From: Asterias amurensis
Taxonomy: Eukaryota; Echinodermata; Asteroidea; Forcipulatida; Asteriidae
Length of the DNA: 64,000 nucleotides
Assembly: GCF_032118995.1 (NCBI RefSeq)
Contig: NC_092648.1
Location: forward strand, 3,797,001 to 3,861,000
Reading direction: 5' to 3'
Shown: in pieces, positions 39,331-62,627 of the stretch
Layout of the letters: each line of letters opens with the position of its first letter
How positions within the stretch are numbered: the stretch's first letter is position 1
Notes under the pieces: generated by a model
Database searches by the model: none
What the model was told of the DNA's origin: nothing
The model's input: only the letters and a program-made list of their open reading frames with translations
Made by a program: the position numbers and the translations under genes

Positions 39331-39360
39331 AATGGTATGCTTACTTTTGTGTAAAGGTGT

Positions 39361-40390: not shown

Positions 40391-40399
40391 TGTATCCCA

Positions 40400-41465: not shown

Positions 41466-41504
41466 GTTTGAAACTGAAATAAATTGTTTGCAGTGGTGTA
41501 CTAT

Positions 41505-41715: not shown

Positions 41716-44700
41716 TTTGGCTGGTTGTTTGTAGAACCTAAATAAATATTCACTAGTTTAATTTGTTGGTATAGAAACGAGGTTGCTGCTAAAGCGTGAG
41801 TCGAGCGGACATCAAGTTGTCGTGCGTTGTAAATATCGCGGAAATATAACATTTGTTTCTTCATATAGGTCTTCTTTGTATAAAATACATAAATGTACTG
41901 GAACGTCTTATCGAACCAGAAAAAAAATAGCAATAGTTATAATCTAACTCCAAAATTAATCCCCAAATTGTATGTACACATAAAATATAACTTTAAAAAA
42001 AGACACACACAAACAAAATTACAAATAATAAGTAAATTAAAATTAATCAATGTTTTAAAACTTATTTGGCATTTAACACATCTAACAACGATTTTGTTAT
42101 GAATATTTTATTCAAAAAGTTCAAAATGTTCAATCTAAAAGAAGTTCTATGTTAATAATTTCTAACCTTTGAGAAATCTTGTAATTAATTTACTGCATGT
42201 TGCAAATTATGACCTTGGTCAAATTGATAAATTTATGAACATTTATATGACAAAATTCAATATATATAAAATTAACAACCAACATTTATTAATGTTATGT
42301 TTTCAGTACTAACTACAATGAATTAAGAACTAACTTAAACATAACAATGTTACAAATAATAACCATTAGTTTAGGCTGCAAGATGTTTATATTTTCTTAT
42401 TCAAAAATGTTCAATATAATTGTGTTACTGCATGTTGCAAATTATGTCATTGGTCAAACTGATAAATTTATGAACACTTATATGACAAAAATCAAGTAGG
42501 AAATTTAACAACCAACATTTATTAATGTTATGTTTTCAGTACTAACTACAATGAATTAAGAACTAACTTAAACATAACAATGTTACAAATAATAACCATA
42601 AGTTTTAGGCTGCAAGATGTTTATATTTTCCTATTTAAAATCTGTAATCTTTTGTAAGATAACATTTTATTTTTGTGCATCACTTACAAGGAGATTTGTT
42701 ACATAAAAGGTTGTGTCAGAGTGTGAGTCGGGCGGACATAAAGTCATCGCGCGTTGAAGATATTGCGACCAATATTGTATCGAAGGACATAATTTACAAA
42801 CAAATTAACATAATAACAAGGATGTTTACTCGGGTATTACAACAAATTATAGAGTTGGGCAACACCAATGAGAATAAATAATTAGCCATGACATTTATTA
42901 AAACAAAATATAAATGATTAGTAGTTTTGTCCTCAAAAACATACAATTATGATTGAATTTTGTTACGTTAATCTAACCACAAACATGCACACAAATAAAT
43001 GAAATAAATTCCATGATTCTAATATATACTTACAAGTAACCACATAAGGAAGAAATGTGTTAATCTAACCACTAACATACACAAAAATAAATGAAATAAA
43101 TTCAATGATTCAAATAAATATACTAACATGCAAAATTATATGTTTTTTTAATGAGCAAAAGAAAATTATAATTTATAGTTATTATGAACACTGTTTAAAA
43201 GTTCTAAATTCGACACTACATGTAATTGATGAAGGCTGTGTAGTGTTTTCTACTATCTTTCCATGAATTCAATTAGGTTTTTAATAATAAAAAAATTATG
43301 CATGTTAATTGAGTGAAATAGAAACATAACATATACTATGATGCGTTATATGCTTAAAAATGTTAACTATTATATGTTATATTACTTCAGTAATAACAAT
43401 CGATTGAGTGTTATAAAAATAAAATGAAACTGAAAGGGTTACGTTTTGTATGAATGGCGTTACCGAGATCGGACGTACATTTATACGTGTCGATGAATTG
43501 ATTAATTAAGCCGTGCGGAAAACAGCCTTGTTTCTGGAAGGTATCTTGTAATACAAGAACTGTGTTAGAAAAATAAAGACATTATTTTCTGTGAATATTT
43601 AATCAGTGAATTTAAGTGACAGCAAATGATCTGATGTTTGACTTGAGAAATAAAATTTAAGTAATCTTTGATATTATAAAAAAAAACTTTTATTGTATGG
43701 TACTTTAAGAAATGTTTCATTAATGAGGCATGTGTAGGGGGTGCTGTTAATTGGATGTCAACAATGGAAATGTTGTTTACGAATGAGCGCTCGGAGATCG
43801 GAAATTCGTTTGTACGTATCGATTGAATTTTGTTACGTTAATCTAACCACTAACATACACCAAAATAAATGAAATAAATTCAATGATTCAAATAAATATA
43901 CTAAAAAGTAACCACATGACAAAGTAACATGTTAAACTAACCACTACAAACACACAAATAAATGAAATAAATTCCATGATTCAAATAAATATACTTACAG
44001 GTAACCACATGACAAAGGAACATGTTGTTTTTTTAATGAGTAAAAGAAAATTACAATTTATCATTTATAGTCATTAAGAATTTTGTTTAATAGTTCTAAA
44101 TTTGACACTACATGTTATTGATGAAGGTTCTGTATTGTCTTCTACTAACTTTTCATAATTAAATTAGGTTTTGAATAAACTAATAGTTATGTTATTTGAA
44201 TGAAAAAGAAACCTAACATATTCTATGATGCGTTATATGCTTAAAACTGTTAAATGTTGTATTACTTCAGTATAAACAATTCATTAACTGTAATAAAACA
44301 AAATGAAAGGGTTGCACAAACATGTACTAGGCATTACAAGTGCACAAATTATGAGTAACAACGACAAAGGAAATATTCGTTTATGAATTAGCGCTGCAGA
44401 GATCGGAGAAACGTTTATATGGGGCAATGCATCGATTGATTAAGCCATGCGAAAAAGGCAGCCTGGTTTCTAGAAAGTAATCTTGTAGTACAATAACTGT
44501 GTTAAGAAAATAAAGACACGATTATCTGTGAATATTTAATCAGTGTGTTGAAAAGTACAATATGTTTATATGATTATACGTTTATACGGGTCGATGCTAG
44601 GATCGATTAAGCCCTGCGAAAAAACAGCCTTGTTTCTAGAAAGGTATCTTGTAATACAAGAACTGTGCTAATAAAATAAAGACTTTCTGTAAATATTTAA

Positions 44701-46200
44701 TCAGTGTGTTGAAATGAAAATATGTTTATACGATTAATACGATTAATACGATTACACAATTATATGGGTCGATGCATCGATTGGTTAAGCCGTGCGAAAA
44801 GACAGCCTCGTTTCTAGAAAGTAATCTTGTAATACAAGAACTGTGTTAAGAAAACAAACGCATGATTTTCTGTGAATATTTAATCAGTGTGTAAAAAGGA
44901 CAGTGAACAGTCCTGTTTGACTTTAAAAATAAAGTTTGAGTTATCTTTGATAATGTAAAACAACTTTTATTGTATCGTACTTTAAGAAGTGTTTTCTTAA
45001 TGAGGCATGTGTAGGAGGTGATATTATTACAAGAACTGTGTTAAGAAAACAAAGACATAATTATCTGTGAATATTTAATCAGTGCGTTTAAAGGACAGCG
45101 ATCCTACGTTTGACTTTAAAAATAAAGTTTGAGTTATCTTTGATATTGTAAAACAAATTTGTATATATTGTACTTAAAGAAATGTTCTCTTAATAAGGCA
45201 TGTGTAGGAGGTGATGTTAATAAAATGTCAAGTCACAAGTTTATAAATTGTCAAATAACGTCGTCGGTGTCGTTCAAATTAACGGGCGCTGCAGAAATTG
45301 AACGTTAATTCACAACTTGTACACGATCGATGCGTCTATTAAACCGTGTAATATGGCAGCCTCGCTTTAGATACGTACTGTTTAATACTTTAATTGTGAC
45401 AATGGTGAATTTTTGTTAAAATTTAAGTAAACTTTGATATGTTATATAACTTTTATTAGAAGTTACTTAAAAGTTTTTATTTTGCGACAACTTTAATCTT
45501 ATTTTGGTCTGAATGAAGAAAAATAAGTAACTTATGTTAAAGTTAAGATAAATCTATAATTTTTTGCTTACTAATTTAGTTATACTTCAAATAAAGGACT
45601 TAAATTTTAGTTAAATTTACTTTGTAACTTTCTAATGTTAAACTTCTTAAAATGTGACATGTATTTAGTCTTAACGACCGTTATTTTAGTCTTCATAAAG
45701 AAAAACAAGTAACTTATGCTTAAGCAATTTGGTATACAAAGTAAGATAAATCTTACGCACTCAAATTCGATGCTTAAAACACCCGTTTGGTAAAAACTAC
45801 ACTAATAATTTTACTTAAACAAAAAACACCTAAATTTAAGTTAAATAGTTTTTATACTTTACTTGGTAATTGTAACTTTCTAATGTTAAACTTCTTAAAA
45901 TGTGACATGTATTTAGTCTTAACGACCTATTATTTGAGTTCTTATAAAGAAAAACAAGTAACTTATGCTTAACCAATTTGGTATTCAAAGTAAGATAAAT
46001 CTTACGCACTCAAATTCGATGCTTAAAGCACCCGTTTGGTAAAAATTACACTAATATTTATACTTAAACAAAAAACACCTAAATTTAAGTTAAATAGGTT
46101 TTTTAAATTTAACTTGGTAACTTTCTTATGTTAAACTATTTAAATGGTACATGTATTTAGTATTAATGGCATTTAGCTTTACTCGTTAATATTTGCATTG
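41716..46200. repeat. AT-rich block of nested duplications
   Basis: Markedly AT-rich, with no open frame longer than 75 codons. Layers: a ~237-bp direct repeat (42190-42410 and 42426-42640); a ~870-bp duplication (42950-43700 and 43822-44560, both opening GATTGAATTTTGTTACGTTA); at least five copies of a ~170-bp block (TAAGCC..GCGAAAA..CAGCCT.GTTTCTAGAAAG, then GTGAATATTTAATCAGTG) at about 43508, 44446, 44609, 44787 and 45025; and a ~247-bp repeat (TTCTAATGTTAAACTTCTTA at about 45628 and 45876, partial at 46120). Confidence 0.75.
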
Positions 46201-46378
46201 TTTATTTTTGTTCTGGAAATAAACCTTTATTTAACGCACACCAACTGACATGTCTTTATTCTATTTTTGTTCTTGTGACTCTTGCTAAGGTCAAAGGTCA
46301 TAGGGTTCATCTCCTTTTTTTTTAATTTGACCTGTCCATTCTAAGGTTTAAATATTAGTTCCGAGCAAATTTTTTCAA

Positions 46379-46463
46379 GAGCTGCCGTAGCGCAGCGGGC
46401 TAGCTCACAGCCCCAGGAATTCTGGAGCTGTGAGCAGGGTGGGTTCAAATCCCTCCGGGGACC
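46379..46463 (+). mobile_element. tRNA-like SINE head
   Basis: A-box-like TAGCGCAGCGGGCTAGC and B box GGGTTCAAATCCC, followed by T6 (a pol III stop signal). Acceptor pairing is poor, so it is a tRNA-derived repeat rather than a working tRNA. Confidence 0.5.
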
Positions 46464-46510
46464 TTTTTTACCATTAAATAAAGAATTTTTTACAATTCTA
46501 ACAAAAATGT

Positions 46511-46578
46511 GCAGGGCTTGAACCGGGGACCTTCCACTCTGTAAGCACTCTCTCTCACTGCTGTGCTACTGAGCTGTT
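46511..46578 (-). mobile_element. tRNA-like SINE head, opposite strand
   Basis: On the - strand: A-box-like TAGCACAGCAGTGAG, B box CCGGTTCAAGCCCTG. It faces the 46379 head tail-to-tail across a ~47-bp AT spacer. Confidence 0.5.
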
Positions 46579-46839
46579 ATAAAAATCTAACGGTTTTTGG
46601 AGTGATGAAGTTAAAAATGGCTGACTTAGAAAATATTTGAGAATTTATTTTCCCTGGCTCAACCCTTGGATTTCTAGCTGATCTGAAGGCTGACCAAGGG
46701 CCTACAAGGGCCTACCAAGGGCCTTGGAGCTTGGCTGGAGGAGTAAAATTTCTAAGTGCTGAGGGGCCAAGGAGGTTCCTCGGTGGGCTAGGGTAAGGGT
46801 CTGGGAGGTTGCTGCAGCCAGTGGGCTCGGTTGGTTGGG

Positions 46840-47765
46840 ATGAGGGCTTGGGCGATGGTAGGAGTGATGATGGGCTTGACTCTTTGGGATGAGGGCTTGG
46901 GGTGATGGTAGGAGTATTTGGCTGGACTGTTTGGGATGAGGACTTGGGGTGATGGTAGGAGAGTGGGGTGGACTGTTTGGGATGAGGACTTGGGGTGATG
47001 GTAGGAGAGTGGGATGGGCTGGTTGGGATGAGGGCTTAGGGTAATGGTAGGAGTGATGATGGGCTGGACTGTTTGGGATGAGGACTTGGGGTGATGGTAG
47101 GAGAGTGGGGTGGACTGTTTGGGATGAGGACTTGGGGTGATGGTAGGAGAGTGGGATGGGCTGGTTGGGATAAGGGCTTAGGGTAATGGTAGGAGTGATG
47201 ATGGGCTGGACTGTTTGGGATGAGGACTTGGGTGATGGTGTAGGAGTAATTGGCTGGACTGTTTGGGATGAGGACTTGGGGTGATGGTAGGAGAGTGGGG
47301 TGGACTGTTTGGGATGAGGACTTGGGGTGATGGTAGGAGAGTGGGATGGGCTGGTTGGGATAAGGGCTTAGGGTAATGGTAGGAGTGATGATGGGCTGGA
47401 CTGTTTGGGATGAGGACTTGGGTGATGGTGTAGGAGTAATTGGCTGGACTGTTTGGGATGAGGACTTGGGTGATGGTGTAGGAGTAATTGGCTGGACTGT
47501 TTGGGATGAGGACTTGGGGTGATGGTAGGAGTAATTGGCTGGACTGTTTGGGATGAGGACTTGGGGTGATGGTAGGAGTAATTGGCTGGACTGTTTGGGA
47601 TGAGGACTTGGGGTGATGGTGTAGGAGTAATGGGCTTGACTGTTTGGGATGAGAGCTTGGGTGATGGTAGGAGTAATAGGCTGGACTGTTTGGGATGAGG
47701 ACTTGGGGTGATGGTAGGAGAGTGGGATGGGCTGGTTGGGATAAGGGCTTGGGTGATGGGTTAGG
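46840..47765. repeat. 46-50-bp minisatellite, ~20 copies
   Basis: Unit GACTGTTTGGGATGAGGACT, TGGGGTGATGGTAGGAG plus a variable linker (TAATTGGCTG, AGTGGGGTG, TGATGATGGGCTG). Linker types recur in a fixed order, a higher-order pattern (47030-47200 versus 47200-47400). A Pro/Ser-rich - strand frame (47178-47816) is a by-product. Confidence 0.9.
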
Positions 47766-47929
47766 GTTGGGACTAGGGACTTTGAGGTTGCTGAGTGTGC
47801 TGATGAGCAGGACCATTGATGGGGAATGACTGTATGGAGATATACATCATTGGGATTGGGTGTGGTCTAAAGAGGAGATGCTGGGTAGATTTAAGTATTG
47901 TTTATGGGGATATAGGTTCTTGGGACTTC

Positions 47930-48400
47930 ACTGTAGTGTGGTATTGTTTTAATGGAACAGTTTAAATTGCATTAAAGGGATATAACAACAAGTAATAAAT
48001 ATCTTGCAATATTGATTTAAAGGTGTACATGTATTATTTAAGTGTTAGGGAATTTGTTTCTTTTAATTGTAATGATGGTATAAGGAGTGGTTTAAGTTTT
48101 TAAAGGTGTGGTACTTTTTGGATTAAAGGGGTTCATTTTATATTAAAGGGACTTGTTTTATTTAATTGTAACAATGGTATAAGTGGTAGTTAGGGTTTTA
48201 AAGGTGTGGTACTTTCCGGATTAAAGGGGCTCATTTTATATCAAAGGAACTTGTTTTATTTAATTGTAACCATGGTATAAATGGTAGTTAGGTTTTTAAA
48301 GATTAAAGGGGCTAATTTTATATTAAAGGAACTTGTTTTATTTAAATGGAATGATGGTATAAGGATTGGTTTAAGTTTTTAAAGGTATTGTACTTTGGGA
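47930..48400. repeat. ~110-bp AT-rich tandem repeat, about four copies
   Basis: TATTTAATTGTAA.GATGGTATAA, GTTTTTAAAGGTGTGGTACTTT and GATTAAAGGGG.TCATTTTATAT recur near 48065, 48160, 48255 and 48340. Confidence 0.7.
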
Positions 48401-48874
48401 TACTTTAATTAGGCTCTATGTCTTCCATAATTAATTCAACAATAAACATAAGTACAAGTATATCACAACAAAATAAGAGAATAAATAGATGTTTTGCTTC
48501 ATTTAAATAGGTATTTTATTTGACAACTCCAATTAATATACTATAAACAATACAATTTTAAGGTTAATATAAAACCATTAGCTAAATTACTGTACTTTGT
48601 AAATGAACTCACTTGAAAAACAGAATCTTGTGAAAAGTGATATTTTATCTATTGGACACAATACCTTTGTTACATTATTTGTGAGTTATCTCATTTATCA
48701 ATAAATAAACAACACTGCTAAGCTGTTACAACTAATTTTGTGCAATAATTTATGCTGATTTCACGTAATTTTTGGAAGGTTGGTTTTTGTCCGCATGGTA
48801 ATGTTTTACTTTTCAGGTACTTTTGTTTTAGGTAATTGAGAAAAGTAATCTCAATTATTACAATTGTCATCTAA
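48401..48874. other. No gene seen
   Basis: AT-rich spacer without supported features. Confidence 0.4.
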
Positions 48875-49071
48875 TAGACCGATCCATTTGGCTCCTCCCA
48901 CAACGCACGTGTGTGCAAGAACACGTCAGCCTCTCCAATGTCTTTCTGCACAACTCTGCCACGCGCGCAATTGCAAAGCATAAGCGCACCCATGACGGAC
49001 TTGATTTTCGGACCTTCGTTTTGTCATGATTGGTCAATACGCAATGGGGCGGAGCTTAATGGATCGGTCTA
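48875..49071. mobile_element. TIR MITE with TAGACCGATCCATT ends
   Basis: Left TAGACCGATCCATT and right AATGGATCGGTCTA are perfect inverted repeats. If the outermost TA is the duplicated target, it fits a Tc1/mariner-like element. GC-rich core inside AT-rich surroundings. Confidence 0.75.
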
Positions 49072-49519
49072 TAAAATGTTCTCACTAAAAGGCTTTAACA
49101 AAAATTGTCAGACTTACTAAACATTCTGTATACGCCATGTTTACTTTGATAAATTAAATTAAACTTGCCCCAAAACAGAACTACTTTCTTTACACGATAA
49201 ATGTTTGACAACAAAAGGTCAACAATGACCTAGGGATGAGTTTGTGAGACTTTTATGTCAACAGTAACAGAACTTTCTCATGTTTTTGATGAAAAATTAC
49301 AATATTTAAACAAAATTGTTAAAATTCATAATAAAAACACAAAAGGATGAGTTTCTTCTTTAAATAAGTTCAACGTCAAGGGTTTACTAGAACCACAGAG
49401 CCAAAACTTTTGAAGGGCATTGTTTTACAAAATGCGAGTTTTTATTTTAACTAAAACAATTATTTTAAATACTGACATGGGTAAACCATGATTCATTGAT
49501 GTGTAAGATGTACAGATGT
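49072..49519. other. No gene seen
   Basis: AT-rich spacer, no supported features. Confidence 0.4.
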
Positions 49520-49830
49520 AAAGCCATGGACACTTAGTAATTACTTATAATAATTGCTACCATTAAAACTTTCTTGGCCATGAGCACTGGAGAGATGTTT
49601 ATGGTATAACGGCTCTCTCTCTGAAGTAACGTAGTTTTTCTAGAAAGAGATAATCACTCAAATAATAAAAGACTTCAGGTCTGAAGCCTTTTATGATGCA
49701 TCTGAAATCAACAAGGGTGTTTTTTTTTCTTACATTATTCTCTTGAAACTTCGATGACCAAATGAGCCGAATGGGTTTGATATTTTGGGATACACCAAGT
49801 GAGATAATAAATGTGTCCATTACCTTTAAG
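49520..49830. mobile_element. TTAA-type MITE, 'GGCAGTGGACAC' family, diverged
   Basis: Starts AAAGCCATGGACACTTAGTA and ends GTGTCCATTACCTTTAAG. Shortened in the centre. Confidence 0.7.
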
Positions 49831-49884
49831 CTATTTGATGGTTCCATTTTGCACTGCACTTCTCAAACTCATAAACTTGAAGAT

Positions 49885-49966
49885 AACAATAATAGTAATA
49901 ATAATAATAATAATAGTAAATAATAATAATAATAATAATAATAGTAATGATAATAATAATAATGAT
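49885..49966. repeat. (ATA/AAT)n microsatellite
   Basis: Imperfect ATA repeats interrupted by GTA and GAT triplets. Confidence 0.9.
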
Positions 49967-50167
49967 AAGTATAAGACTTGTAATGCGCACATATCCACCC
50001 CTGCTGGGTGTTCAAGGCGCAGTGATGGTTATTGGCTATATAGACGATGTGACCAGTGACATCACATAAAACTGTTTAGCTCTGTCGTATCAAATAACTC
50101 ATTTTAAACAGTAACGCATTCCAATCTTTGATCTTCTATACACATTACCTACATCTGTAAAACCTTA

Positions 50168-50518
50168 TTAAAGGGACACTATTGGTAATTACTCAAAATA
50201 ATTATTAGCCTAAAACCTTACTTGGTAGCAAGCAATTGAGAGCTGTTGATAGTATAATACATTGTGGGAAACAGCTCCCTCTAAATAAATTTAGTTTTTG
50301 AGAAAGAATTTTCAAGATCTCAGAATTAGATTTTGAGGTGTTTAGATCAAGCATCTTTTAACACAACTTAGTGTGACAAGGGTTTTTTCCTTTCATTGTT
50401 ATCTTGTTACTTCGATAACCAATTAAGCTCCAATTTTCACAGGTTTGTTAATTCATGAGATACACCAAGTGAGAAGACTGGTCTTTGACAACTAGCAATA
50501 GAGTCCAGCGTCTTTAAT
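50168..50518. mobile_element. TTAA-type MITE, 'GGCAGTGGACAC' family
   Basis: Starts ATTAAAGGGACACTATTGGT (outermost bases lost), ends GAGTCCAGCGTCTTTAAT. Lies just outside the 3' edge of the - strand exon array. Confidence 0.75.
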
Positions 50519-50746
50519 TAATGAGTTAAATAGTTTTAAAAAAGGGGTATTGTTAATCGAAACTTGTTTATATTTTTTAAGTCTGTTATCAATCTGTAGG
50601 GAAAACCATTCATTTGGGTTAGGCTGATGCCAGCATGAAGTCCCCAAAATGTTGTGGCATGTGGTGTATAGGGGTGCCGTCTGTAAAAGTGCTGCAAACA
50701 CAGCCCACTTTTTTAATGTTAGTGTAACCACCGGGATGTTAAATAC

Positions 50747-50872
50747 CTCTATTGTAACCCTCAAACATCTAGACAAGTGCAGGATGGGAAGACAGCGGGT
50801 AGATGGTAAGCACTTGTAGGTCTCAGACACAAACACTTGGGATGAGCATTCATTGGAGAATGGTGCGCATTT
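50747..50872 (-). other. Exon-like unit 1 (most 3' in the array)
   Basis: Acceptor TTCTCTCTCTAG, donor AATAGAG|GTATTT (weaker than the others). 126 bp, open end to end in phase 0 to 0: KCAPFSNECSSQVFV, SETYKCLPSTRCLP, with six Cys. The most diverged unit; its 3' half differs from the rest. The + strand sequence CAGCCCAC at its flank links it to the far edge of the array. Confidence 0.5.
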
Positions 50873-51793
50873 CTAGAGAGAGAAGAAATGTAAATCATTG
50901 TTAACAAATGCTAGTCATCTTGGCAACCATATTGCAATTCATCTAGGCAGCCAGTGCAATCTGGGCAACAATTGCATGCAACTGGGCAACCAAGGGCACA
51001 CAACGAAACAACTATTGCCAATGATATGGGCAACTAATGCCAGTCATCTGGGAAACCATTACCATTGCCATGTACCAAGTACAACCATTGCCCTACATCT
51101 GGGTAAAAACACCATCTGGATGACCATTGCCGTACGTCTGGGCAATCATTGCATGTCACCTTGGCAGTCACTGTAATTCCTCTGGGCAACCATATGTCAA
51201 TCATCTGGGCAACCACGACCATCTAGGCAACAATTGCTAGTCATCTAGCTGGGCAACCATTGCCATACATCTAGGCAGCAATCGCTAGTTATCAGGGTAA
51301 CCATTGCAATTGATCTTGGCAACCATGGCCATTTATCTGGGCAATCATTGCCATACACCTGGGCAATCATTGCAATCTTGGCAACAATGCCATGCATCTG
51401 GGCTACAAAGTGCATATAAGCAGGCAACTATTGTCAATATATGGACAACCTGATGCATGTCACCTGGGCATCACTGTAATTTATGTGAATCATTTATGTG
51501 AATGGCAACCATATGTGAACCATCTGGGCAACCATTACCATACATCTAGGCAACAACTGCTAGTCATCTAGCTGGGCAACCATTGCCATACAACTAGGCA
51601 GCAATTGCTAGTTATCAGGGTAACCTTTGCAATTTATCTTGGCAACCATGGCCATTTATCTGGGCAATCATTGCAATACAACTGGGCAACTATGGTAATT
51701 GACTGAGCAACAATTGCCATATACACAACAAGGCAACCATTGCCAATGATCGATCTGGGCAAATGAACCAATCCAAAATGGGGTTTTACATAC

Positions 51794-51893
51794 CTGTTGT
51801 GTACACGTAGATGGTTGATGGATGATGGGGCAGGCACTTGCTGGTCTCTGACACCATTACTTTTCGTATTCATCCAAGAAAGAGCAAGCATTT
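51794..51893 (-). other. Exon-like unit 2
   Basis: Acceptor CCCTTTTTTAG, donor AACAG|GTATGT. 100 bp, open with phase-1 entry and phase-2 exit (…LALSWMNTKSNGVRDQQV…). Confidence 0.5.
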
Positions 51894-52915
51894 CTAAAAA
51901 AGGGAAAATGAAATCAAGGTTGATATTTAATTCAACTGGGCAACTATTGCTCGTCCTCTTGGCAACCATTACCATTATCTAGGCAACAACAGCAATACAA
52001 CAGATCAATAATTGACAATGATTTGGGCAACCATTGCAAAACATCTGGGCAACCATAGCCAGTCATCTTTGCAACCATTACCTTTCATTGGGGCCACCAT
52101 TGCCAATCATCTGGGAAGCCATTGCCATAGATCTTGGCATCCATTACCATACATTATGGGGCATGCCAATGCTAGCCATCTGGGCACCCATACCGCCATC
52201 TATCTGGGCAACCATTGCAATCTGGGCAACAATGCCATGCATATAGGGAACAAATGGCATACAAGTAGGCAACCATTGTCAACAATATGTGCAACCAATG
52301 TCATTCCTTTGGGCAACCCTTGCCATACAACTGTACAACCACTGCCATTCAACGGGGCAACCATTTATCTGGCAATCATAACCATTTATCTGGGCAATAA
52401 TTGCAAGTCATTGTGCAACGATTGCCCTAGAACCAGAACACAATTGCCATTCATGGGCAACTACTGCCAGTCAAAAGGGCAAAAGGCAACAATTGCTAGT
52501 TATCAGGGCAACCATTGCAATTGATCTTGGCAACCATGGCCATTTATCTGGGCAATCATTGCCGTACACCTGGGCAACCATTGCAATCTGGGCAACAATG
52601 CCATGCATCTAGGCAACAAAGGGCATACAAGTAGGCAACCATTGTCATGGACAACCAATGCATGTCACCCCGGCATCACTGTAATTCATCTGGCAACCAT
52701 ATGTCAATTATCAGGGCAACCATTGTCATTCATCTGGGCATCAATTGCCATAAATCTTGGCAACCATTGCTAGTCATCTGGGCAACCATTGCCAAACATC
52801 TGGGCAACTATCAGGGCAACCATTGCTTGTCATCTGGGCAACCATGGTAATTTTTCTGGGTAATCATTTTCATACACCTGGGCAACTATGGTAATTAATT
52901 TTTGATTTTACATAC

Positions 52916-53017
52916 CTATGATGTGTAGATGCTACATGGATGACTGGGTAGATGGTAGGCACTTGCAGGTCTCTGACACCATTACTGTGTGTATTCATCC
53001 AAGAATGGCACGCATTT
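52916..53017 (-). other. Exon-like unit 3
   Basis: Acceptor TTTCTCTCCTTTTCTAG, donor CATAG|GTATGT. 102 bp, symmetrical phase 2/2, open: ACHSWMNTHSNGVRDLQVP. Confidence 0.55.
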
Positions 53018-53343
53018 CTAGAAAAGGAGAGAAATGAAATCAAGGCTGAGATTGAATTCATCTGGGCAACTGTAGCCCGTCCTCTATCTAGGCAACAATA
53101 TCCATACAACTGAGCAACCATTGCAAACCATCGAGGCAACCATTGCCAATCACCTGGGAAACCATTGGCATTAATCTGGGCATCTATTGTCATACAATGG
53201 GGCAACCAATGTAGCCAACTGGGCCACCATATTGCCATTCATCTGGGACACCATTGCAATGTGGGCAACAATGCCATTCCTTTGGGCAACCCTTGCCATA
53301 CAACTAATGCAAATAAACCATTCAAAAATGGGATTTTACATAC

Positions 53344-53445
53344 CTATGTTGTGTAGATGCTACATAGATGACTGGGTAGATGGTAGGCACTTGCAGGTCT
53401 CTGACACCATTACTGTGTGTATTCATCCAAGAATGGCACGCATTT
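53344..53445 (-). other. Exon-like unit 4
   Basis: Acceptor CCCTTTATCAG (CAG instead of TAG, still a valid AG), donor CATAG|GTATGT. 102 bp, phase 2/2, open; nearly identical to units 3 and 6. The SINE at 53476 sits about 30 bp upstream in transcript sense, near the branch-point region. Confidence 0.55.
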
Positions 53446-53475
53446 CTGATAAAGGGAAAAAGAAATCAAGGTAGA

Positions 53476-53800
53476 GTGTCATGGCCGAGTGGTTAAGAGC
53501 ATCGAATTCAAGTTCTGGTGCGTTTTCACCGGAGTGTGGGTTCGAATCCCGGTTGTGACACTTGTGTCCTTGAGCAAGATACTTTACTATAATTGCTTCT
53601 CTTCACCCAGGGGAATAAATGGGTACCTGCGAGGGTAGAGGCTGATATTGTGAATGAAAAGCTTTCGGAGCGCCACGGCAGCTCGGGGCTGTATACTCCC
53701 TAATAGGAGCTGATAACGATTACAGGGACCAGGGGACTAAAGTAAAGCGCATTGATACGGTTTATTGTGAAATGCGCTATATAAGAACTTGTTATTATAA
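53476..53800 (+). mobile_element. tRNA-Leu-like SINE, complete
   Basis: The head (53476-53561) folds like a class II tRNA. A 7-bp acceptor stem GTGTCAT/GTGACAC closes it; GGCCGAGTGGTTAAG is the Leu/Ser-type A box; TTCAAGT fits a CAA anticodon loop; there is a long variable arm, and GGGTTCGAATCCC is the B box. The anticodon stem has mismatches. A ~240-bp body follows (…GCGCCACGGCAGCTCGGGGC…) ending GCGCTATATAAGAACTTG plus a short ATT/ATAA tail. AAGGT at both ends (53468-53472 and 53799-53803) looks like a target-site duplication. Mobilised by a LINE in trans. Confidence 0.8.
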
Positions 53801-54320
53801 GGTTGAGATTAGTTCAACTGGGCAACTATAGCTTGTCCTCTTAGCAACCATAACCATTATCTAGGTAACAATAGCAATACAACAGCGCAACCATTGACAA
53901 TAATCTGGGCAACCATTGCCAGTCACCTGAAAAACCATTACCATAAATCTGGGCATCCATTGCCATAAATTTGGGCAACCAATGCTAGCCATCTGGGCAA
54001 CCATATTGCCATTATCTTGGACACCAACGAATTTGGGCAACAATGCCATGCATCTGGGCAACAAAGGGCATACAGGAAGGCAACCATTGCCATACATCTG
54101 GGCAATCACTGTAATTCATCTGGTCAACCATAATTATATCAATCATCAGGGCAACAAATGTCATTCATCTAAGCAACCATTACTAGTCATCTGGGCAACC
54201 ATATGTAAATCATTTCGGCAACCAATGCCATACATCTAGGCAACAATTGCTATAGTCATCTGGGCAACCCTTGCCAATGATGTGGGCAAAGGAACCAATC
54301 CAAAATGGGATTTGACATAC

Positions 54321-54423
54321 CTCATGTTGTGTAGATGCTACATGGATGACTGGGTAGATGGTAGGCACTTGTAGGTCTCTGACATCGTTACTTTGTGTAT
54401 TCATCCAAGAATGGCACGCATTT
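54321..54423 (-). other. Exon-like unit 5
   Basis: Acceptor TTTCTCCCCTTTCTAG, donor ATGAG|GTATGT. 103 bp (one base more than units 3, 4 and 6), open, phase 2 entry, phase 0 exit. Confidence 0.55.
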
Positions 54424-54970
54424 CTAGAAAGGGGAGAAATGAAATCAAGATTGAGATTTAATTCATCTTGGCAACTAAAGCTAGTCCCCTTGGCAACCAT
54501 AACCATCATCTAGGTAACAATAGCCATACAGCAGAGCAACCATTGGCAATGATCTGGGAAAGCATTGCCTTAAATCTGGGCATCCATTGCCAGTCACCTT
54601 GGAAATTATTGGCATTAATTTGGGCATCCATTGTCATACAATGGGGCAACCAATGCTAGCCATCTGGGCAACCATATTGCCATTCATCTGGGCAACCAAT
54701 GCTAGCCATCTGGGCAACCATTACTGCCATTCATCTGGGACACCCTTTCAATCCGGGCAACAATGACATGCAGCTGGGAAACAAAGGGCATACAAGCAGG
54801 CAACCATAGTAAATAGTATGGACAACCAATGCATGTTAGCTGGGCAATCACTGTAATTTATCTGGGCAACCAATGTCAATCATCAGGGCAACCTTTGCCA
54901 TACATCAATGCTACCATTACCAATGATCTATCTGGGCAAATAAACCATTCAAAAATGGGATTTGACATAC

Positions 54971-55072
54971 CTATGTTGTGTAGATGCTACATAGATGACT
55001 GGGTAGATGGTAGGCACTTGTAGGTCTCTGACACCATTACTGTGTGTATTCATCCAAGAATGGCACGCATTT
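54971..55072 (-). other. Exon-like unit 6
   Basis: Acceptor TTTCTCTCCTTTTCTAG, donor CATAG|GTATGT. 102 bp, phase 2/2, open. Very close to unit 4. Confidence 0.55.
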
Positions 55073-55704
55073 CTAGAAAAGGAGAGAAATGAAATCAAGG
55101 CTGAGATTTAATTCAGCTGGGCAACTATAGCTCGTCCGCTTGGCAACCAATACCATTATCTAGGCATCAATAGCCATAAAACAGAGAATCAATGCAAACC
55201 ATCTAGGCAACCATTGCCATACACCTGTGAAACCATTGCCATAAATCTGGGCATCCATTGCCATAAATTGGGGCAACCAATGGTAGCCATCTGGGCAACC
55301 ATATTGCCATTCATCTGGGACACCCTTTCAATCATGGCAACAATGCCATGTATCTGGGCAACAAAGGGCATACAAGTAGGCAACCATTGTCAATAATATG
55401 GACAACCAATGCATGTCACCTCTCACCTGGGCAATCACTGTAATTCATCTGGGCAACCATATGTCAATCATCAGGGCAACCAATCTCATTCATTGGGGCA
55501 ACCATGGCAATACATCTGGTCACAATTGCTAGTTCATGGCAACCATTGCAATTGATCTTGGCAACCAAGGCCATTTATCTGGTCAATCATTGCCATACAC
55601 CTGGGCAACCATTGCAATTGATCGGGCAACCATTGCCATATATCAAGGCAACCATTGCCAATGGTCTGGACAAAGGAACCAATCAAAAATGGGATTTTAC
55701 ATAC

Positions 55705-56364
55705 CTATGTTGTGTAGATGCTACAGGGATGACTGGGTAGATAAGGGACGAATTCAAAATTAAACAAGCGGTAACTCGGGGGCTTTTTCAGAATCCCCCG
55801 AGGTAATACAGGGTATTTACAGCCTTGCATACGAACAATAGAGTCATGAATATCCGTCTGCACATGCTGGGTCAACTTGGTTGTGGTTGGGTGACCACGG
55901 ATACAAAGAGCAATTTAACAAAAGGCAAGAGTTGTGCTTGGGATTACGTCAGCAAGGGATTATCGGATTAGTGACAGATGCCTGGCTGCTCCAATAAATG
56001 TTCTTCTGATCCATTCAGGTACTCAATGGTTCTAAAGAAACCAATGGACCGCAAACTCCACTGGTCTATTGTTGAACAGTATCAATTACGGATTAACCGA
56101 GCCTCTGCCAAACCGCGGGGCGGCCGGCGGCGATATCAATGAAGTAAACTTGGCTCTCTGCGGCCCCAAGAGCAATGTTCATTGACCTGTAGATAATGAG
56201 CTCATTATGGTCCGACTTCCTTTTGCCTTGTAAAACCCCGGGGGAAAATGAAGATTTACCCCGAGTTACCGATTGTTTAATTTTGAATTCGCCCCTAATA
56301 GGCACTTGCAGGTCTCTAGCTGACATCGTTACTTTGTGAATTCATCCAAGGATGGCACGCACTT
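55705..56364 (-). other. Exon-like unit 7, split by a TIR element
   Basis: Donor side 55705-55743 (CATAG|GTATGT intact), acceptor side 56297-56364 (CCCATTCTAG). Without the 553-bp insertion the unit would be about 107 bp. The insertion must be younger than the duplication that made this unit. Confidence 0.6.
55744..56296. mobile_element. 553-bp TIR element inside exon-like unit 7
   Basis: Left AGGGACGAATTCAAAATTAA and right TTAATTTTGAATTCGCCCCT continue to a ~38-bp inverted repeat with two mismatches, ending at CTCGGGG/CCCCGAG. TA occurs near both junctions. No transposase; the 77-codon - frame (56093-56326) is not a known protein. Superfamily undetermined. Confidence 0.8.
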
Positions 56365-57409
56365 CTAGAATGGGGAGAAATGAAATCAAGGTTGAGATTT
56401 AATTCATCTGGGCAACTATCGCTCGTCCTCTTGGCAACCACCTTTATCTAGGCAACAATATCCATACAACTGAGCAACCATTGCAAACCATCAAGGCAAC
56501 CATTGCCAATCACCTGGGCAAACCATTGCCATAAATCTGGGCATCCATTGCCATACATAGGGGCAACCAATGCTAGCCATCTGGGCAACCATTATTGCCA
56601 TTCGTCTGGGACACCATTGCAATCTGGGCAACAATGCCATGCATCTGGGGAACAAAGGGCATACAAGTAGGCAACCATATTCAACAATATGTGCAACCAA
56701 TGCCATTCCTTTGGGCAACCCTTGCCATACAACTGTACAACCACTGCCATTCAACAGGGCAACCATTTGCCCAACATCTGGGGAGCCTCTGCCATCTATC
56801 TGGCAATCATGACCATTCATCTGGGCAATAATTGCCAGTCATTTGTGCACGTTTGCCCTAGAACTGGGACACCATCGCCAATCATCTGAGCAATTACTGC
56901 CAGTCAAAAGGGCAACTATTGTCTGCTGGGCAACCATTGACCCATTAACAGGGCAATCATTGCAAGTCATCTGTGCAACCATTGTCAGTCATGGTCAACA
57001 ATAATTGCCTTTCATCTGGGCATTAACTGCCAGTCATCTGTACGATCGCCACAAACATCTGGGCAACCATTGCCATCGATTTGGGCAACCATTTGCCAGT
57101 CATCTGGGCAACCGTTGTACATCTGGGCAAACATTACAAAACAACTGAGCACCGATTGACAATGATCTGGGCAACCAATGCTCTACTTCTGACCAAAAAC
57201 TGCCATCTGAGCAACATTGCCATACATCTGGGCGACCGTCCATACATCCTGGCAGCAATTGCCGACATCTGGGCAACCATTGCTAGTTATCAGGGCAACC
57301 ATTGCAATTGATCAGTGCAACCATTACAATTGATCAAGCAACCATTGCCAAACATCGAGGCAACCATTGGAATGGGCAAATGAACCATCAAAAATGGGAT
57401 TTTACATAC

Positions 57410-57550
57410 CTATGTTGTGTAGATGCTACAGGGATGACTGGGTAGATGGTAGATGTGTATGTAGATGGTCAATGGAGGATTGGGTAAGCACTTGCAGGTC
57501 TCTGTCACAAACACTTTGGATGGGTACTCATCCGAGAATTACAGGCATTT
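57410..57550 (-). other. Exon-like unit 8, enlarged
   Basis: Acceptor TATGCCCTTTCTAG, donor CATAG|GTATGT. 141 bp because the 3' part (GTAGATG..GGGTAGATGG) is internally duplicated. No frame is open across it. Confidence 0.5.
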
Positions 57551-58100
57551 CTAGAAAGGGCATAAATAAAAATGTCAAAATGATGTAAACCATGCTTGAT
57601 ATTTAATTCATCTGGGCAACTAGCCAGTCCTCTTGGCAAAACATTGCCATCATCATGGTAACCATTGCCATACAACTGAGCAAAAATTTACAAGGATCTT
57701 GTCAACAGTTGCCATACATTAAGCAACCATTGACAATAAACATGGCAACCACTGCCAACTATTGCCAGCCATCTAGGCAACGATAAACAAAAAAACCAAT
57801 GCCTGTCATTTGGGCAACCAGCCATAGTTTTATTAGGGCAACTATTGCCAGTTATCCGGGTAACCTTTTGCCATGCGATGGAACAAGCAATGCAAGTCAT
57901 CTGGGCTAACATTTCATCATTCACTGAGCAAGCGTCTGGGCAACCAAAGGCATACATTATGGGCAACCATTGCCAAACATGAGGGCCACTATTGCCCAAC
58001 ATCAAGGCATTAAGTCCTCTTTGCAACCTTTGTCAATCATCAAAGCAACCAAGTGATCTGGGTAACTAAAAAAAATTGACCATCTTGGAAGTTTACATAC

Positions 58101-58210
58101 CTGTGTTGTGTAGATGGTCGATGGATGACTGGGTAGACTGGGTAGGCACTTGCAGGTCTCTGACACAAACACTTTGGATGGGTACTCATCGAACAAAATG
58201 GCACGCATTT
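58101..58210 (-). other. Exon-like unit 9
   Basis: Acceptor TGTGCCCTTTCTAG, donor ACACAG|GTATGT. 110 bp; open in two frames: phase 1 to 0 (LFDEYPSKVFVSETCKCLP) and phase 0 to 2. Confidence 0.5.
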
Positions 58211-58460
58211 CTAGAAAGGGCACAAATGAAAATGTCAAAATGATGTCAAACAAGCGTGATATTTAATTCATCTGGCAACTAGTTAGTCAGTCCTCTTGGC
58301 AACCATTGCCATACAACTGAGCAACCATTGACAAGGATCTGGGCAACCATTGCCATACATCTGGGCAACCAATTACAGTCATTTGGACAACGATGGTAAT
58401 ACATCAGAGCAACCACTGTCAGTCATCTGGGCAGCCATTCACACAACTATTTAACAATTG

Positions 58461-58960
58461 ACATTGTTATACCTCGGTAATAAACTGTGAAGTTTGATTG
58501 GTCGAGAACCAATCATGTGATGCGCCTCAAAAACGCATGTTACATGGCTGGACGGGCCGGGTAACATTAAAAGTGATGCACACCGGTGTACATCACCTTG
58601 ATCGTTCCTGGCGTTGGTTGATTTCCAGCGCTGTGTACGAAACAACCGGGGGTTTAAGGGAATTGTTTCTCCTTCGTCTGCTTATTAAACAATAAATAGT
58701 CCGTCGTAATAATGTTTGAAGATGACAACAGAACTTTGAGAAGAGGAATAACAATTATACAAAGGTATAACAAAACAATTGTTGCACGCTGTGACGGGGT
58801 CCATGGGTTTTGTAAACCCTCGAGGGAAAATGGCACCCTCGGCTTCGCCTCAGGTGCCATTTCCCCTCAGGTGCCATTTCCCCTCAGGTGCCATTTCCCC
58901 TCGGGTGTACATACGCCATTGACCCCGTCACAGCGTGCAACAATTGTATAATGTTATGGA
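58461..58960. mobile_element. Inserted block containing a TIR MITE (58775-58947)
   Basis: The 21-bp intron repeat stops at about 58455 and resumes at about 58955. Within the block, ACAATTGTTGCACGCTGTGA and ACAGCGTGCAACAATTGT are perfect inverted repeats continuing through CGGGGTC/GACCCCG. The core has three CTCAGGTGCCATTTCCC repeats. The outer part (58461-58770, starting GTTATACCTCGGTAATAAAC) may be an older element into which the MITE jumped. Confidence 0.65.
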
Positions 58961-59260
58961 CAACCATTGCAGTTACATCTGGTAAACCAATGCCAGTCAT
59001 TTGGGCAACCATTGCCATACACAGGGCAACAATTGCTAGTTAACCTTTGCAATGCGATGGAACAAGCAATGCCAGTCATCTGGGCAAACATTTTGTCATT
59101 CACGAGGCAAGCATCTGGGCAACTAAAAGGCACACATCATTTCCCAACATCTAGGCATTAACGGCCAGTCCTCTGGGCATCCTTTGGCATTCATCAAAGC
59201 AACCAAGTGAGCTAGACAACTAAAAAGTTTTGAAAAGTAACCAAAATTAATTTTACATAC

Positions 59261-59364
59261 CTATGTTGTGTAGATGGTCAATGGAGGATTGGTAGATGGT
59301 AGACACTTGCAGGTCTCTGACACAACACTTTGGATGGGTACTCATCCGAGAATTACACGCATTT
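59261..59364 (-). other. Exon-like unit 10
   Basis: Acceptor GTGCCCTTTCTAG, donor CATAG|GTATGT. 104 bp, open with phase-2 entry, phase-1 exit (…RMSTHPKCCVRDLQVST…). Confidence 0.5.
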
Positions 59365-59937
59365 CTAGAAAGGGCACAAATAAAAATGTCAAAATGATGT
59401 AAAACATGCTTGATATTTAATTCATCTAGGCAACTAGCCAGTCCTCTTGGCAAAACATTGCCATCATTATGGCAACCAGTGCCGTACAACTGAGCAACCA
59501 TTGACAATAATCTTGGCAACTATTGCCACACATCAGGGCAACTATTGCTAGTCATCTAGGCAACCACACCTTTAAAAAAACCATATTAACCAATGCCAGT
59601 CATTTGGAATCCAGCCATACTTTTATTGGGCAACTATTGCCAGTCATCTGAGCAACCGTTATGAAACTGATTGACGATTGACAAAGTTATGGGCCCACTT
59701 TACCAATGATACGGGCAACAGTGGCCAATGACATGTGCAACCATTGCCAATGATATGGGAACCCAAAGCCTTACATATGTACAACCAATGTCATACATCT
59801 GGGCATTTTTTGCCATTCATCTGTGTTTTCAGAAGTTTTTTTAATTGGTCAGTGGAGTTAGCGGCTTTGATGAAAGAAGCGATGTTGTTCCAATCTGTGG
59901 CATCTGGGCAACCTTTGTCATTCATCAAAGCACATAC

Positions 59938-60045
59938 CTATGTTGTGTAGATGGTCGATGGATGACTGGGTAGACATGGGTAGGCACTTGCAGGTCTACT
60001 ACACAAACACTTTGGATGAGTCTCATCAGAGAATTACACGCATTT
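59938..60045 (-). other. Exon-like unit 11
   Basis: Acceptor ATGCCCTTTCTAG, donor CATAG|GTATGT. 108 bp, symmetrical phase 2/2, open (…SVCVVDLQVPTHVYPVI…). Confidence 0.5.
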
Positions 60046-60706
60046 CTAGAAAGGGCATAAATGAAAATGTCAATATTATGTAAAATATGCTTGATATTTA
60101 ATTCACCTGGGCAACTAGTTAGCCAGTTCTCTTGGCAACCAGTAACATCAGCTAAGCAAGCATTGACAAGGATCTTGGTACCCCACTGCCATACATCAGA
60201 GCAACTATTGCCAGTCATCTTCGCAACCATACAAATGAAAATACTAACCAATGCCAGTCACTTGGGCAACCATTGCCATACTTCTAATTGGGCAACCACT
60301 GCCAGTCATCTGAGCAACCATTATTAAACTCATTAACCATTAACCATTAACCATATGGGCAACCATTGCCAATGATAAGGGCAATCACTGGCAATGATAT
60401 GGACAAACATTGCCAATAATATGGGCAACCAATGTCAGTCATTTGAGCAACAATTGCCATACATATATGGACAACATTGTCATCTGGACAACCATTGTCA
60501 TCTGGGCAACCATTGTCATCTGGGCCACCATTGTCATCTGGGCCACCATTGTCCTTAATCTGGGCATTACCTTCCAGTCATCTGGGAACCCAAAGCCTAA
60601 CATACGGACAACCATTGTCTTTTATCTGGGCTACCGTTGCCATTCATGTGGTCAATCTTTTAACCCTTCAAAAAAGTGATGCAACAGCGGAAGGGATTTT
60701 ACATAC

Positions 60707-60820
60707 CTATAATGTTGTGTAGATTGCTGATGGATGACATGGGTATAAAGATGGTAGGCACTTGCAGGTCTCTAACACCAACACTTTGGATGGGTTCTCA
60801 ACGAAGAATGGCACGCATTT
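60707..60820 (-). other. Exon-like unit 12
   Basis: Acceptor TGTGCTCTTTCTAG, donor TTATAG|GTATGT. 114 bp; in phase 0 it reads VPFFVENPSKVLVLETCKCL and on to a TAG that is also the last exon codon. Confidence 0.5.
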
Positions 60821-61316
60821 CTAGAAAGAGCACAAAGGAAAATGTCGAAACCATGTAAAACAGGGTTAAGATTTAATTCATCTGGGAAACTACCCAGTCC
60901 CCTTTGCAACCATTGCCATCGTAAAGGCAACCATTGCCATACAACTGAGCAACCATTGACAAAGATCTGGGCAACCATTGCCATACATCTGGGCAACCAA
61001 TGACAGTCATTTCAGCAATGATTGTCATACATTAAAGCAATTTTCATCTGGGCATGCCATTGCCAGTAATCCGGACAACCATTGCCATGAGGCAAGCAAT
61101 GCAAGTCATCTTGGCAAAAGTATCGTCATTCACTGGGCAAGCATCTGGGTAACCAAGGGCATACAATATGGGCAACCATTGCTATACATGTTGGCCACCA
61201 TTGTCCTCTAGGCATTAACTGCCAGTCATCTGGGCAATCTTTGTCATTCATCAAAGCAACCAAGTGATCAGGGCAACTAAAAAGTTTTTAAAAGTTACCA
61301 CAGGAATTTTACATAC

Positions 61317-61422
61317 CTTAGTTGTGTAGATGGTCGATGGATGACTAGGTAGACGGTAGGCACTTGCAGGTCTCTGACACCAACACTTTGGATGGGTACT
61401 CATCGAAGAATGGCACGCATTT
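61317..61422 (-). other. Exon-like unit 13
   Basis: Acceptor ATGCCCTTTCTAG, donor ACTAAG|GTATGT. 106 bp, open with phase-2 entry and phase-0 exit (…STHPKCWCQRPASAYRLP…). With unit 14 it forms a recent ~475-bp duplication including the intron. Confidence 0.5.
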
Positions 61423-61791
61423 CTAGAAAGGGCATAAATTAAAATGTCAAAATTATGTAAAACATGCTTGACATTTCATTCATCTGGGCAACTAGTTAGC
61501 CAAACCTCTTGGCAACCATTGCCATCATCATGGCAACCATTGTCGTACAACTGAGCAACGATTTACAAGAATCTGGGCAACCACCGCCATACATCTGGGC
61601 AACCATGAATGTTAGTCATTTGCGCACCCATTGCAATACATCAGGGCAACCACCATCAGGCATCTGGGCAACCATATCCCCTACAACTTGCCATTGCCAT
61701 ACAGTGGGGCAACCGATGACAGTCCTCTGGGCAACCAAGTGATCAGGGCAACTAAAAAGTTTTTAAAAGTTACCATGGGAATTTTACATAC

Positions 61792-61897
61792 CTTAGTTGT
61801 GTAGACGGTCAATGGATGACTAGGTAGACGATAGGCACTTGCAGGTCTCTGACACCAACACTTTGGATGGGTACTCATCGAAGAATGGCACGCATTT
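61792..61897 (-). other. Exon-like unit 14
   Basis: Acceptor and donor as in unit 13; 106 bp, open phase 2 to 0. Sequence almost identical to unit 13. Confidence 0.5.
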
Positions 61898-62503
61898 CTA
61901 GAAAGGGCATAAATTAAAATGTCAAAATTATGTAAAACATGCTTGACATTTCATTCATCTGGGCAACTAGTTAGCCAAACCTCTTGGCAACCATTGCCAT
62001 CATCATGGCAACCATTGCTGTACAACTGTGCAACGATTGACAAAAATCTGGGCAACCACTGCCATATGTCTGGGCAACCATGAATGTTAGTCATTTGGGT
62101 ACGCATTGTAATACATCAGAGCAACCACCATCAGGCATCTGGGCAACCATATCCCCTACAACTTGCCATTGTCATACAGTGGGGCAACCGATGACAGTTA
62201 TCTGGGCAACCTTTGCCAGTCATCTGGGCAACACTGGGCAACCTACATCTGGGCAGCCAAACATCAGGGCAACCAAACTCTAGATCTGGGTTAACCTTTG
62301 CCAGTCATCTGGGCAACTATTACCATACATCTTGCCGTTGCCATACAGTGGGGCAACCGATGGCAGTCATCTGGGCAACCAGTGTCAGTCATCTATACAT
62401 GGGCTTGAATGCAGTTTGTTGTGGCGTAAAAGTATGATGATACAGTGCTGCAAAAACAGCCCACCTACCCAAGATCGGGGAAAGAAGAAAGGTTAATACT
62501 TAC

Positions 62504-62627
62504 TCTTACTATCTGGATGTACATCTTCATAAGGTAGACATTGAGCTGAAGGTGTACATATGCCCCAGACATTTACTTTGTTGTGGCTGAGCAAAACATC
62601 TTTGGAGAAATCGGCACGCCTTTTTGT
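62504..62627 (-). other. Exon-like unit 15, 5' member, diverged
   Basis: Acceptor TTAATTCTGCAG, donor AGTAAGA|GTAAGT (full consensus). 124 bp, open in phase 0 with phase-1 exit (RRADFSKDVLLSHNKVNVWG, then ICTPSAQCLPYEDVHPDSK). Weak nucleotide similarity to the other units (AAA.GCGTGCC, TGTCTACC). It marks the 5' border of the array, where the 21-bp repeat ends. Confidence 0.45.

What the first reader, a model, noticed from the sequence alone, without database searches (positions are those of the whole stretch)
50747..62627. Fifteen tandem exon-like units on the - strand with preserved splice signals
Seen: blocks of 100-141 bp repeat 15 times in one orientation. Nearly all have a pyrimidine tract + (T/C)AG before and AG|GTATGT after; unit 15 has AGA|GTAAGT. 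The spacers are degenerate minisatellite, yet splice sites stay intact. Known: tandem exon duplication is a route to mutually exclusive or combinatorial splicing in animal genes. Inference: one gene or lncRNA with a repeated ~34-residue module (e.g. WMNTHSNGVRDLQVP, or KCVPFFDEYPSKVFVSETCKC in another frame). Units 3, 4, 6 and 11 are phase 2/2; the others change phase, so a continuous protein is not assured. At ~100 bp an open frame in some phase is about a coin toss, so openness alone is weak evidence.
Basis: partly seen in the sequence, partly recalled or inferred. Interest (0 to 1): 0.85.

Follow-up and report, generated by a model that had tools for sequence, protein, structure and literature searches.

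The report
Tandemly copied exon-like blocks in starfish
A starfish chromosome carries one small exon-like block copied fifteen times in a row, and a second set of eight in the opposite orientation about 250,000 bases away; every copy keeps intact splicing signals although the block does not read as a protein, so it may be a spliced noncoding RNA built from repeated modules, but no RNA data were available to show that it is made.

Summary
In detail: 15 related units on the minus strand (62627-50747), each between an AG acceptor and a GT donor, separated by a 22-bp minisatellite; unit 7 is split by a 552-bp insert. The genome is Asterias amurensis (its longest published scaffold has exactly the length of contig C1). 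New: a second, inverted array of 8 units lies about 253 kb away (C1:4112179-4119939); searches found no other copy. All 23 units keep AG and GT; AGGTATGT occurs only at unit ends (13 in A, 6 in B), never antisense. The protein reading fails: 11 of 22 uninterrupted exons are not multiples of three, 4 of 22 are closed in every frame, no codon periodicity, no synonymous excess, no Pfam family. The AG and the donor change less than the exon (p 0.006), but the pyrimidine tract does not, and exon versus upstream flank is not significant (p 0.11). Best reading: a tandemly amplified noncoding exon of a spliced RNA, laid out like FIRRE or SNORD116 host exons; a decaying relic is the main rival. There is no RNA evidence.

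The parts
62504..62627 (-). unit A15, 124 nt; most diverged type; acceptor TTCTGCAG, donor GTAAGT; counterpart is B8 in array B
61792..61897 (-). unit A14, 106 nt, donor GTATGT
61317..61422 (-). unit A13, 106 nt; with A14 it forms a 475-bp tandem duplication (95% matches)
60707..60820 (-). unit A12, 114 nt, closed in all three frames
59938..60045 (-). unit A11, 108 nt
59261..59364 (-). unit A10, 104 nt
58101..58210 (-). unit A9, 110 nt
57410..57550 (-). unit A8, 141 nt, internal partial duplication, closed in all three frames
55705..56364 (-). unit A7, exon split by an insert; AG and GT at both ends still intact
55746..56297 (.). 552-bp insert inside exon A7; first and last 39 bases match inverted at 36 of 39 (MITE-like)
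54971..55072 (-). unit A6, 102 nt
54321..54423 (-). unit A5, 103 nt
53344..53445 (-). unit A4, 102 nt; an inserted element ends just 5' of its acceptor, shared with unit B3 of array B
52916..53017 (-). unit A3, 102 nt
51794..51893 (-). unit A2, 100 nt
50747..50872 (-). unit A1, 126 nt, donor GTATTT; exon 95% identical to B1
50873..62503 (.). 14 spacers (326-1050 nt) of a degenerate 22-bp minisatellite containing a short self-complementary word GGCAAYGGTTGCC, with a few inserts; the 20-mer TGGCAATGGTTGCCCAGATG matches the genome exactly 7 times, all in arrays A and B
38108..51106 (.). 3' flank shared as an inverted duplication with C1:4119.6-4132.1k; identity rises unevenly outward, from 0.88-0.98 per 200 columns near 49.6-51.2 kb to 0.975-1.00 below 44 kb

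Best explanation
One ancestral exon of about 105 nt, with its AG acceptor and GT donor, was amplified in tandem inside a transcription unit on this strand, probably by unequal exchange between the 22-bp minisatellite spacers. Shown: 15 units here and 8 in a second inverted array, all with intact splice dinucleotides, without a consistent reading frame. Inferred: the locus is transcribed and the units are spliced into an RNA of many similar modules (the 14 uninterrupted units of array A sum to 1548 nt), acting, if at all, as a noncoding RNA with a repeated motif; GAGACCTRCAAGTGCYTACC is the longest well-kept stretch, exact in 14 of 23 units. On this reading selection holds the splice dinucleotides, the donor and part of the module, not an amino-acid sequence.
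For: AG and GT intact in 23 of 23 units; AGGTATGT only at unit ends, 13 in A and 6 in B, 0 antisense. AG + GTATGT columns 0.125 changes each against 1.15 in the exon and 1.70 upstream; Mann-Whitney p 0.006 and 0.005. In the most diverged pair, A15/B8 (mean 20-nt window identity 0.66), 4 of the 10 top windows span a junction, 5 end 3-7 nt before the donor, 1 lies elsewhere. Pair A13/B7: acceptor window 22/22, exon middle 80/86, donor window 17/18, against 58/81 upstream and 22/52 downstream. Units of the two arrays pair off (A2/B2, A4/B3, A1/B1 with bootstrap 95-100; A3/B4, A5/B5, A12/B7 with 71-79). No coding signature. Core 20-mer. Sum of exons.
Against: No RNA data. Exon versus upstream flank is not significant per column (p 0.11). 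The pyrimidine tract is no better kept than the upstream flank, and in between-group comparisons acceptor identity is below the upstream flank (0.816 against 0.840 for G5 x G3, 0.810 against 0.891 for G3 x G3). Contiguous-window controls are weaker than the Poisson figure; in A15/B8 the junction windows rank only in the top 8% and 14%, and with another aligner its exon (0.80) is below its upstream flank (0.855). Several pairs go the other way: A2/B2 donor window 12/18, below both flanks; upstream flank above exon middle in A2/B2 and A6/B6; A3/B4 acceptor window 0.714; A1/B1 acceptor window 0.818 against 0.949 upstream. One exon is split by an insert. A/B homology stops near 62.7 kb, so no shared first exon or promoter was found. 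No conserved fold.
Confidence: 0.48

Rival explanations
1. Relic: the array comes from exons of a gene (perhaps once coding, since KCVPFFDEYPSKVFVSETCKC-like frames survive in some units) that no longer makes a product. Recent duplication and exchange between units carry the splice sites along, so they look preserved without present selection.
For: Units are close relatives, and the 3' flanks of the two arrays are far more alike than the 5' ends, as exchange would leave them. Exon and upstream flank rates do not differ significantly per column, and the pyrimidine tract is not better kept than the flank. Exon A7 is split by an insert. 4 of 22 uninterrupted units are closed in all frames.
Against: AG + GTATGT columns change less than exon columns. 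A15 and B8 have splice edges unlike the other units and no other copy was found to copy from; they match best at or near both junctions.
Confidence: 0.35
2. Not exons: a higher-order minisatellite whose longer component happens to begin after a pyrimidine-AG and end in AGGTATGT, both inherited from one founding unit.
For: The spacers are a minisatellite whose 20-base word was found only here, and a whole unit with its spacer has been duplicated (475-bp pair).
Against: Both ends of the block carry splice dinucleotides in 23 of 23 units; indels at the exon end still leave AG|GT in the 19 GTATGT units; the AG + GTATGT columns are the least changed.
Confidence: 0.11
3. A protein-coding gene with an array of alternative (mutually exclusive or combinatorial) exons.
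For: 18 of 22 uninterrupted units are open in at least one frame; the six 102-nt units share one open frame without stops.
Against: 11 of 22 lengths are not multiples of 3; 4 of 22 are closed in all frames; changes do not depend on codon position (p 0.84 and 0.39); 1 synonymous against 8 non-synonymous codon differences in the open frame, where about 22% synonymous is expected without selection; no Pfam family; no convincing relative elsewhere in the genome.
Confidence: 0.05

Closest known systems
FIRRE lncRNA and its exonic local repeat RRD (PMC4820808, passages seen)
   Same: A repeat largely confined to one locus overlaps many exons of one noncoding gene (7 of 13 in human, 11 of 23 in mouse, as the paper states), with other local repeats mostly in introns.
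   Different: FIRRE is mammalian and shown to be transcribed, and RRD was shown to hold RNA in the nucleus. Here nothing is shown at RNA level; I made no sequence comparison with RRD, and the spacers are a short-period minisatellite.
SNORD116 host exons (IPW-A / 116HG) of the Prader-Willi region (PMC4742849, abstract and passages seen)
   Same: Array of repeated noncoding exons flanked by intronic sequence.
   Different: There the introns carry C/D snoRNAs. Here no Rfam family reached its threshold in the window (array B was not scanned), and RTGATGA words are no denser than in two control stretches.
Mutually exclusive exon arrays of animal coding genes (recalled; not compared by sequence)
   Same: Tandem duplication of one exon with kept splice sites.
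   Different: Those keep reading frame and protein homology (recalled); these units do not.

Membership tests
Coding array of alternative exons | exon lengths and frames compatible with one reading frame | tested here: not met
   11 of 22 uninterrupted exons not a multiple of 3; 4 of 22 closed in all frames
Coding array of alternative exons | purifying selection on amino acids | tested here: not met
   no codon-position bias (p 0.84, 0.39); 1 syn: 8 nonsyn in the open frame of six units
Coding array of alternative exons | tandem exons with splice sites | tested here: met
   AG and GT in 23 of 23 units
lncRNA with exonic local repeats (FIRRE-like layout) | repeat confined to one locus | tested here: met
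   units found only in arrays A and B on C1; one search adds six C3 matches at E 0.2-0.7, taken as chance and not followed up; hit lists are lower bounds
lncRNA with exonic local repeats (FIRRE-like layout) | repeats lie in exons of a transcribed, spliced, noncoding RNA | not testable with these tools
   no RNA data held; only the noncoding part is supported
snoRNA host-exon array (SNORD116 type) | snoRNA in the introns | tested here: not met
   0 Rfam matches at gathering score in the window; a family not in Rfam would be missed; array B not scanned
Minisatellite | short unit repeated head to tail | tested here: met
   22-bp period in the spacers, 60-86% matches in the rows listed

The most novel reading that the evidence does not exclude
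A locus-specific noncoding RNA of an echinoderm made of up to 14-15 similar spliced modules, in which every intron is built of a partly self-complementary 22-bp repeat, so that any intron can pair with any other; exon skipping, variation in module number or circular RNAs would then be built into the locus. Two inverted arrays on one chromosome would give two diverging versions.
Probability: 0.1. Interest if true: 0.7.

Novelty: new variant of a known kind. Interest (0 to 1): 0.42.

Why it matters
If transcribed, this would be a FIRRE-like layout (one repeated exon, repeat-filled introns, confined to one locus) arisen separately in a starfish, with two arrays of different copy number to compare. 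It would let one ask how tandem exon number evolves in a noncoding RNA, and whether the splice sites or the module itself are under selection.

Tried and rejected
Protein reading: the peptide of unit A9 searched against the own genome gives 19 matches, 13 in the two arrays and six at E 0.2-0.7 in a C3 stretch taken as chance and not examined; no Pfam match for it or for the 126-aa open frame over unit 1. Host gene in the flanks: Pfam on three minus-strand frames and one plus-strand frame of window 38201-50750, and on three minus-strand frames of the 10 kb just beyond the window's right end, found nothing; the other plus-strand frames and window 62628-64000 were not scanned. Known RNA families in the window: none. 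tRNA in the window: none. Conserved exon structure, tested on 16 of 23 units: 7 pairs, none with a two-sided change, -0.91 kcal/mol. Single folds not notable (exon z 0.98; spacer stretch z -1.94). RFX X-box idea for the spacers: GTTGCC is dense (14.6 and 18.4 per kb against 0.3-0.5 in controls), but the full site as I wrote it from memory is absent from both arrays. Spliced retrocopy: no match to unit 9 outside the arrays at E up to 1. Sex-determination link: the published candidate region is on chromosome 10 (PMC11757944, passages), whereas the window lies on the longest scaffold. Literature: 'tandemly repeated exons' + 'non-coding RNA', 'tandem exon duplication' + lncRNA, starfish + tandem + 'exon duplication', lncRNA + echinoderm + 'tandem repeats' + exon listed no paper whose title or abstract start describes this locus; I judged these from the listings alone.
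Full report
Source. The window is C1:3797001-3861000 of a 491,506,623-base, 23-contig genome. C1 is 38,009,675 bases long, exactly the largest scaffold of the published Asterias amurensis assembly (PMC10625585, section 7; the paper's total, 491,537,102, differs slightly). C23 (16,427 bases) carries a COX1 whose 447 translated residues contain no stop under the echinoderm mitochondrial code. So this is the northern Pacific sea star.

Observation. Array A has 15 units between 62627 and 50747 on the minus strand. Leaving out unit 7, the exons are 100-141 nt; unit 7 measures 660 nt because of a 552-bp insert with inverted ends. Spacers are 326-1050 nt of a degenerate 22-bp minisatellite. One search prints exon ends one base too long for all units but A15 and B8; the lengths used here are those.

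A second array. Searches of the own genome with a stretch over unit 1 (25 matches), unit 15 (2 matches), unit 9 (23 matches) and the unit 9 peptide (19 matches) found array A and one further place on C1, 4112179-4119939 on the plus strand, with 8 units, B8 to B1. All matches lie in the two arrays; the peptide search has six others, on C3 at E 0.2-0.7, which I take as chance and did not examine. Hit lists of this tool are lower bounds. The 5' ends of the two arrays are about 253 kb apart and the arrays point away from each other. Their outer (3') flanks form an inverted duplication whose identity rises unevenly outward, from 0.88-0.98 per 200 columns near 49.6-51.2 kb to 0.975-1.00 below 44 kb, while the inner (5') ends match at about 73%. 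In the unit tree (A15 and B8 left out) A1/B1, A2/B2 and A4/B3 group with bootstrap 95-100, A3/B4, A5/B5 and A12/B7 with 71-79; deeper nodes are weakly supported. The order agrees between arrays except that A3/A4 against B4/B3 are swapped. A4 and B3 share an inserted element next to the acceptor. The array was therefore probably already multi-unit before it was duplicated; since then A has grown or B has shrunk, and exchange between the arms may have blurred the picture.

Splice signals. AG and GT are present in 23 of 23 units: 19 GTATGT, 2 GTAAGT (A15, B8), 2 GTATTT (A1, B1). In the 14,001 and 12,000 bases held for the two arrays AGGTATGT occurs 13 and 6 times on the sense strand, every one at a unit end, and 0 times antisense. 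On the tree of 21 units the 8 columns AG + GTATGT have 0.125 changes each, exon columns 1.15, upstream 1.70, downstream 3.93; these 8 differ from exon (p 0.006) and upstream (p 0.005), but exon does not differ significantly from upstream (p 0.11). The pyrimidine tract is not better kept than the upstream flank (1.67 against 1.71). ML relative rates are 0.51 acceptor+donor, 0.61 exon, 1.00 upstream, 2.99 downstream; the downstream figure is inflated by poor alignment. Expected changes in the 8 columns at the exon rate are 9.7, observed 1 (P 6e-4); 8 randomly drawn columns reach this in 0.18% of draws; contiguous windows more often, 18.5% for two columns and 3.4% for six.

Pairs between arrays. 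A15/B8 is the most diverged: 20/22 at the acceptor window, 16/18 at the donor window, 67/108 in the exon middle, 49/90 upstream, 31/54 downstream. Of its ten best 20-nt windows, 4 span a junction, 5 end 3-7 nt before the donor and 1 lies at +88 to +107. In ranking terms the junction windows are in the top 8% and 14%, so this is suggestive only; with a different aligner the exon is at 0.80 and the upstream flank at 0.855. A13/B7 shows sharp edges: 119 of 126 positions in junction windows plus exon, 80 of 133 in the flanks. Other pairs disagree: A2/B2 has 12/18 at the donor window, below both its flanks; A2/B2 and A6/B6 have better kept upstream flanks than exon middles; A3/B4 has 0.714 at the acceptor window against 0.744 upstream; A1/B1 0.818 against 0.949. 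Over 7 of the 8 pairs (A1/B1 left out as nearly identical throughout) junction windows are at 0.90, exon middle 0.85, upstream 0.81, downstream 0.70, gaps counted as mismatches.

Coding potential. 11 of 22 uninterrupted exons are not multiples of three; 18 of 22 are open in some frame and 4 (A8, A12, B7, B8) in none. Changes do not depend on codon position. Six 102-nt units share an open frame but show 1 synonymous and 8 non-synonymous differences there. No Pfam family for the peptide or the 126-aa frame over unit 1. I conclude that the units are not coding as they stand.

What it most likely is. A tandemly amplified noncoding exon of a spliced RNA. Shown: copies, splice sites, lack of a coding signature, two arrays. 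Inferred: transcription, splicing, function. The layout resembles FIRRE, where one local repeat overlaps 7 of 13 human and 11 of 23 mouse exons (PMC4820808, passages), and SNORD116 host exons (PMC4742849, abstract and passages), but no known snoRNA was found in the window and there is no RNA evidence, so I file it under neither.

Noticed in passing
window 38108-51106 and C1:4119580-4132097: Inverted duplication whose identity rises unevenly away from the gap between the arms, from 0.88-0.98 to 0.975-1.00 per 200 columns, as if the outer part is kept alike by exchange.
   Followed up: partly
window 32804-38108: 60-bp tandem array, 88 copies, with long open frames on both strands (one of 751 aa).
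   Followed up: no
window 29759-31017: 84-bp tandem array, also listed with a 341-bp period; similar arrays lie in the inverted duplicate.
   Followed up: no
window 19029-20475: 19-bp tandem arrays whose plus-strand frames stay open over long stretches (up to 263 aa) although 19 is not divisible by three.
   Followed up: no
window 24383-24880, minus strand: Fragment with a reverse transcriptase domain (Pfam RVT_1, E 1.3e-9).
   Followed up: no
C1:4102265-4103584, plus strand (L017:7265-8584): Sulfite-oxidase-like reading frame (Oxidored_molyb and Mo-co_dimer) about 8.6 kb upstream of array B on the same strand; tblastn found no counterpart in the 154 kb read around array A.
   Followed up: partly
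C5:658874-660214 and C5:675294-676634: Two nuclear stretches match COX1 almost as well as the mitochondrial contig, probably nuclear copies of mitochondrial DNA.
   Followed up: no
C1:4111507-4111601: Just upstream of array B lies a diverged copy of sequence that follows unit 1 at the 3' end (E 1.8e-7), a hint that the older repeat unit was larger.
   Followed up: partly
window 58779-58943: Inverted-repeat stretch in the spacer between units 10 and 9.
   Followed up: no
C3:8705243-8706665: Six weak matches (E 0.2-0.7, 45% identity, one TGA each) to the unit 9 peptide, tightly spaced as in a tandem array.
   Followed up: no
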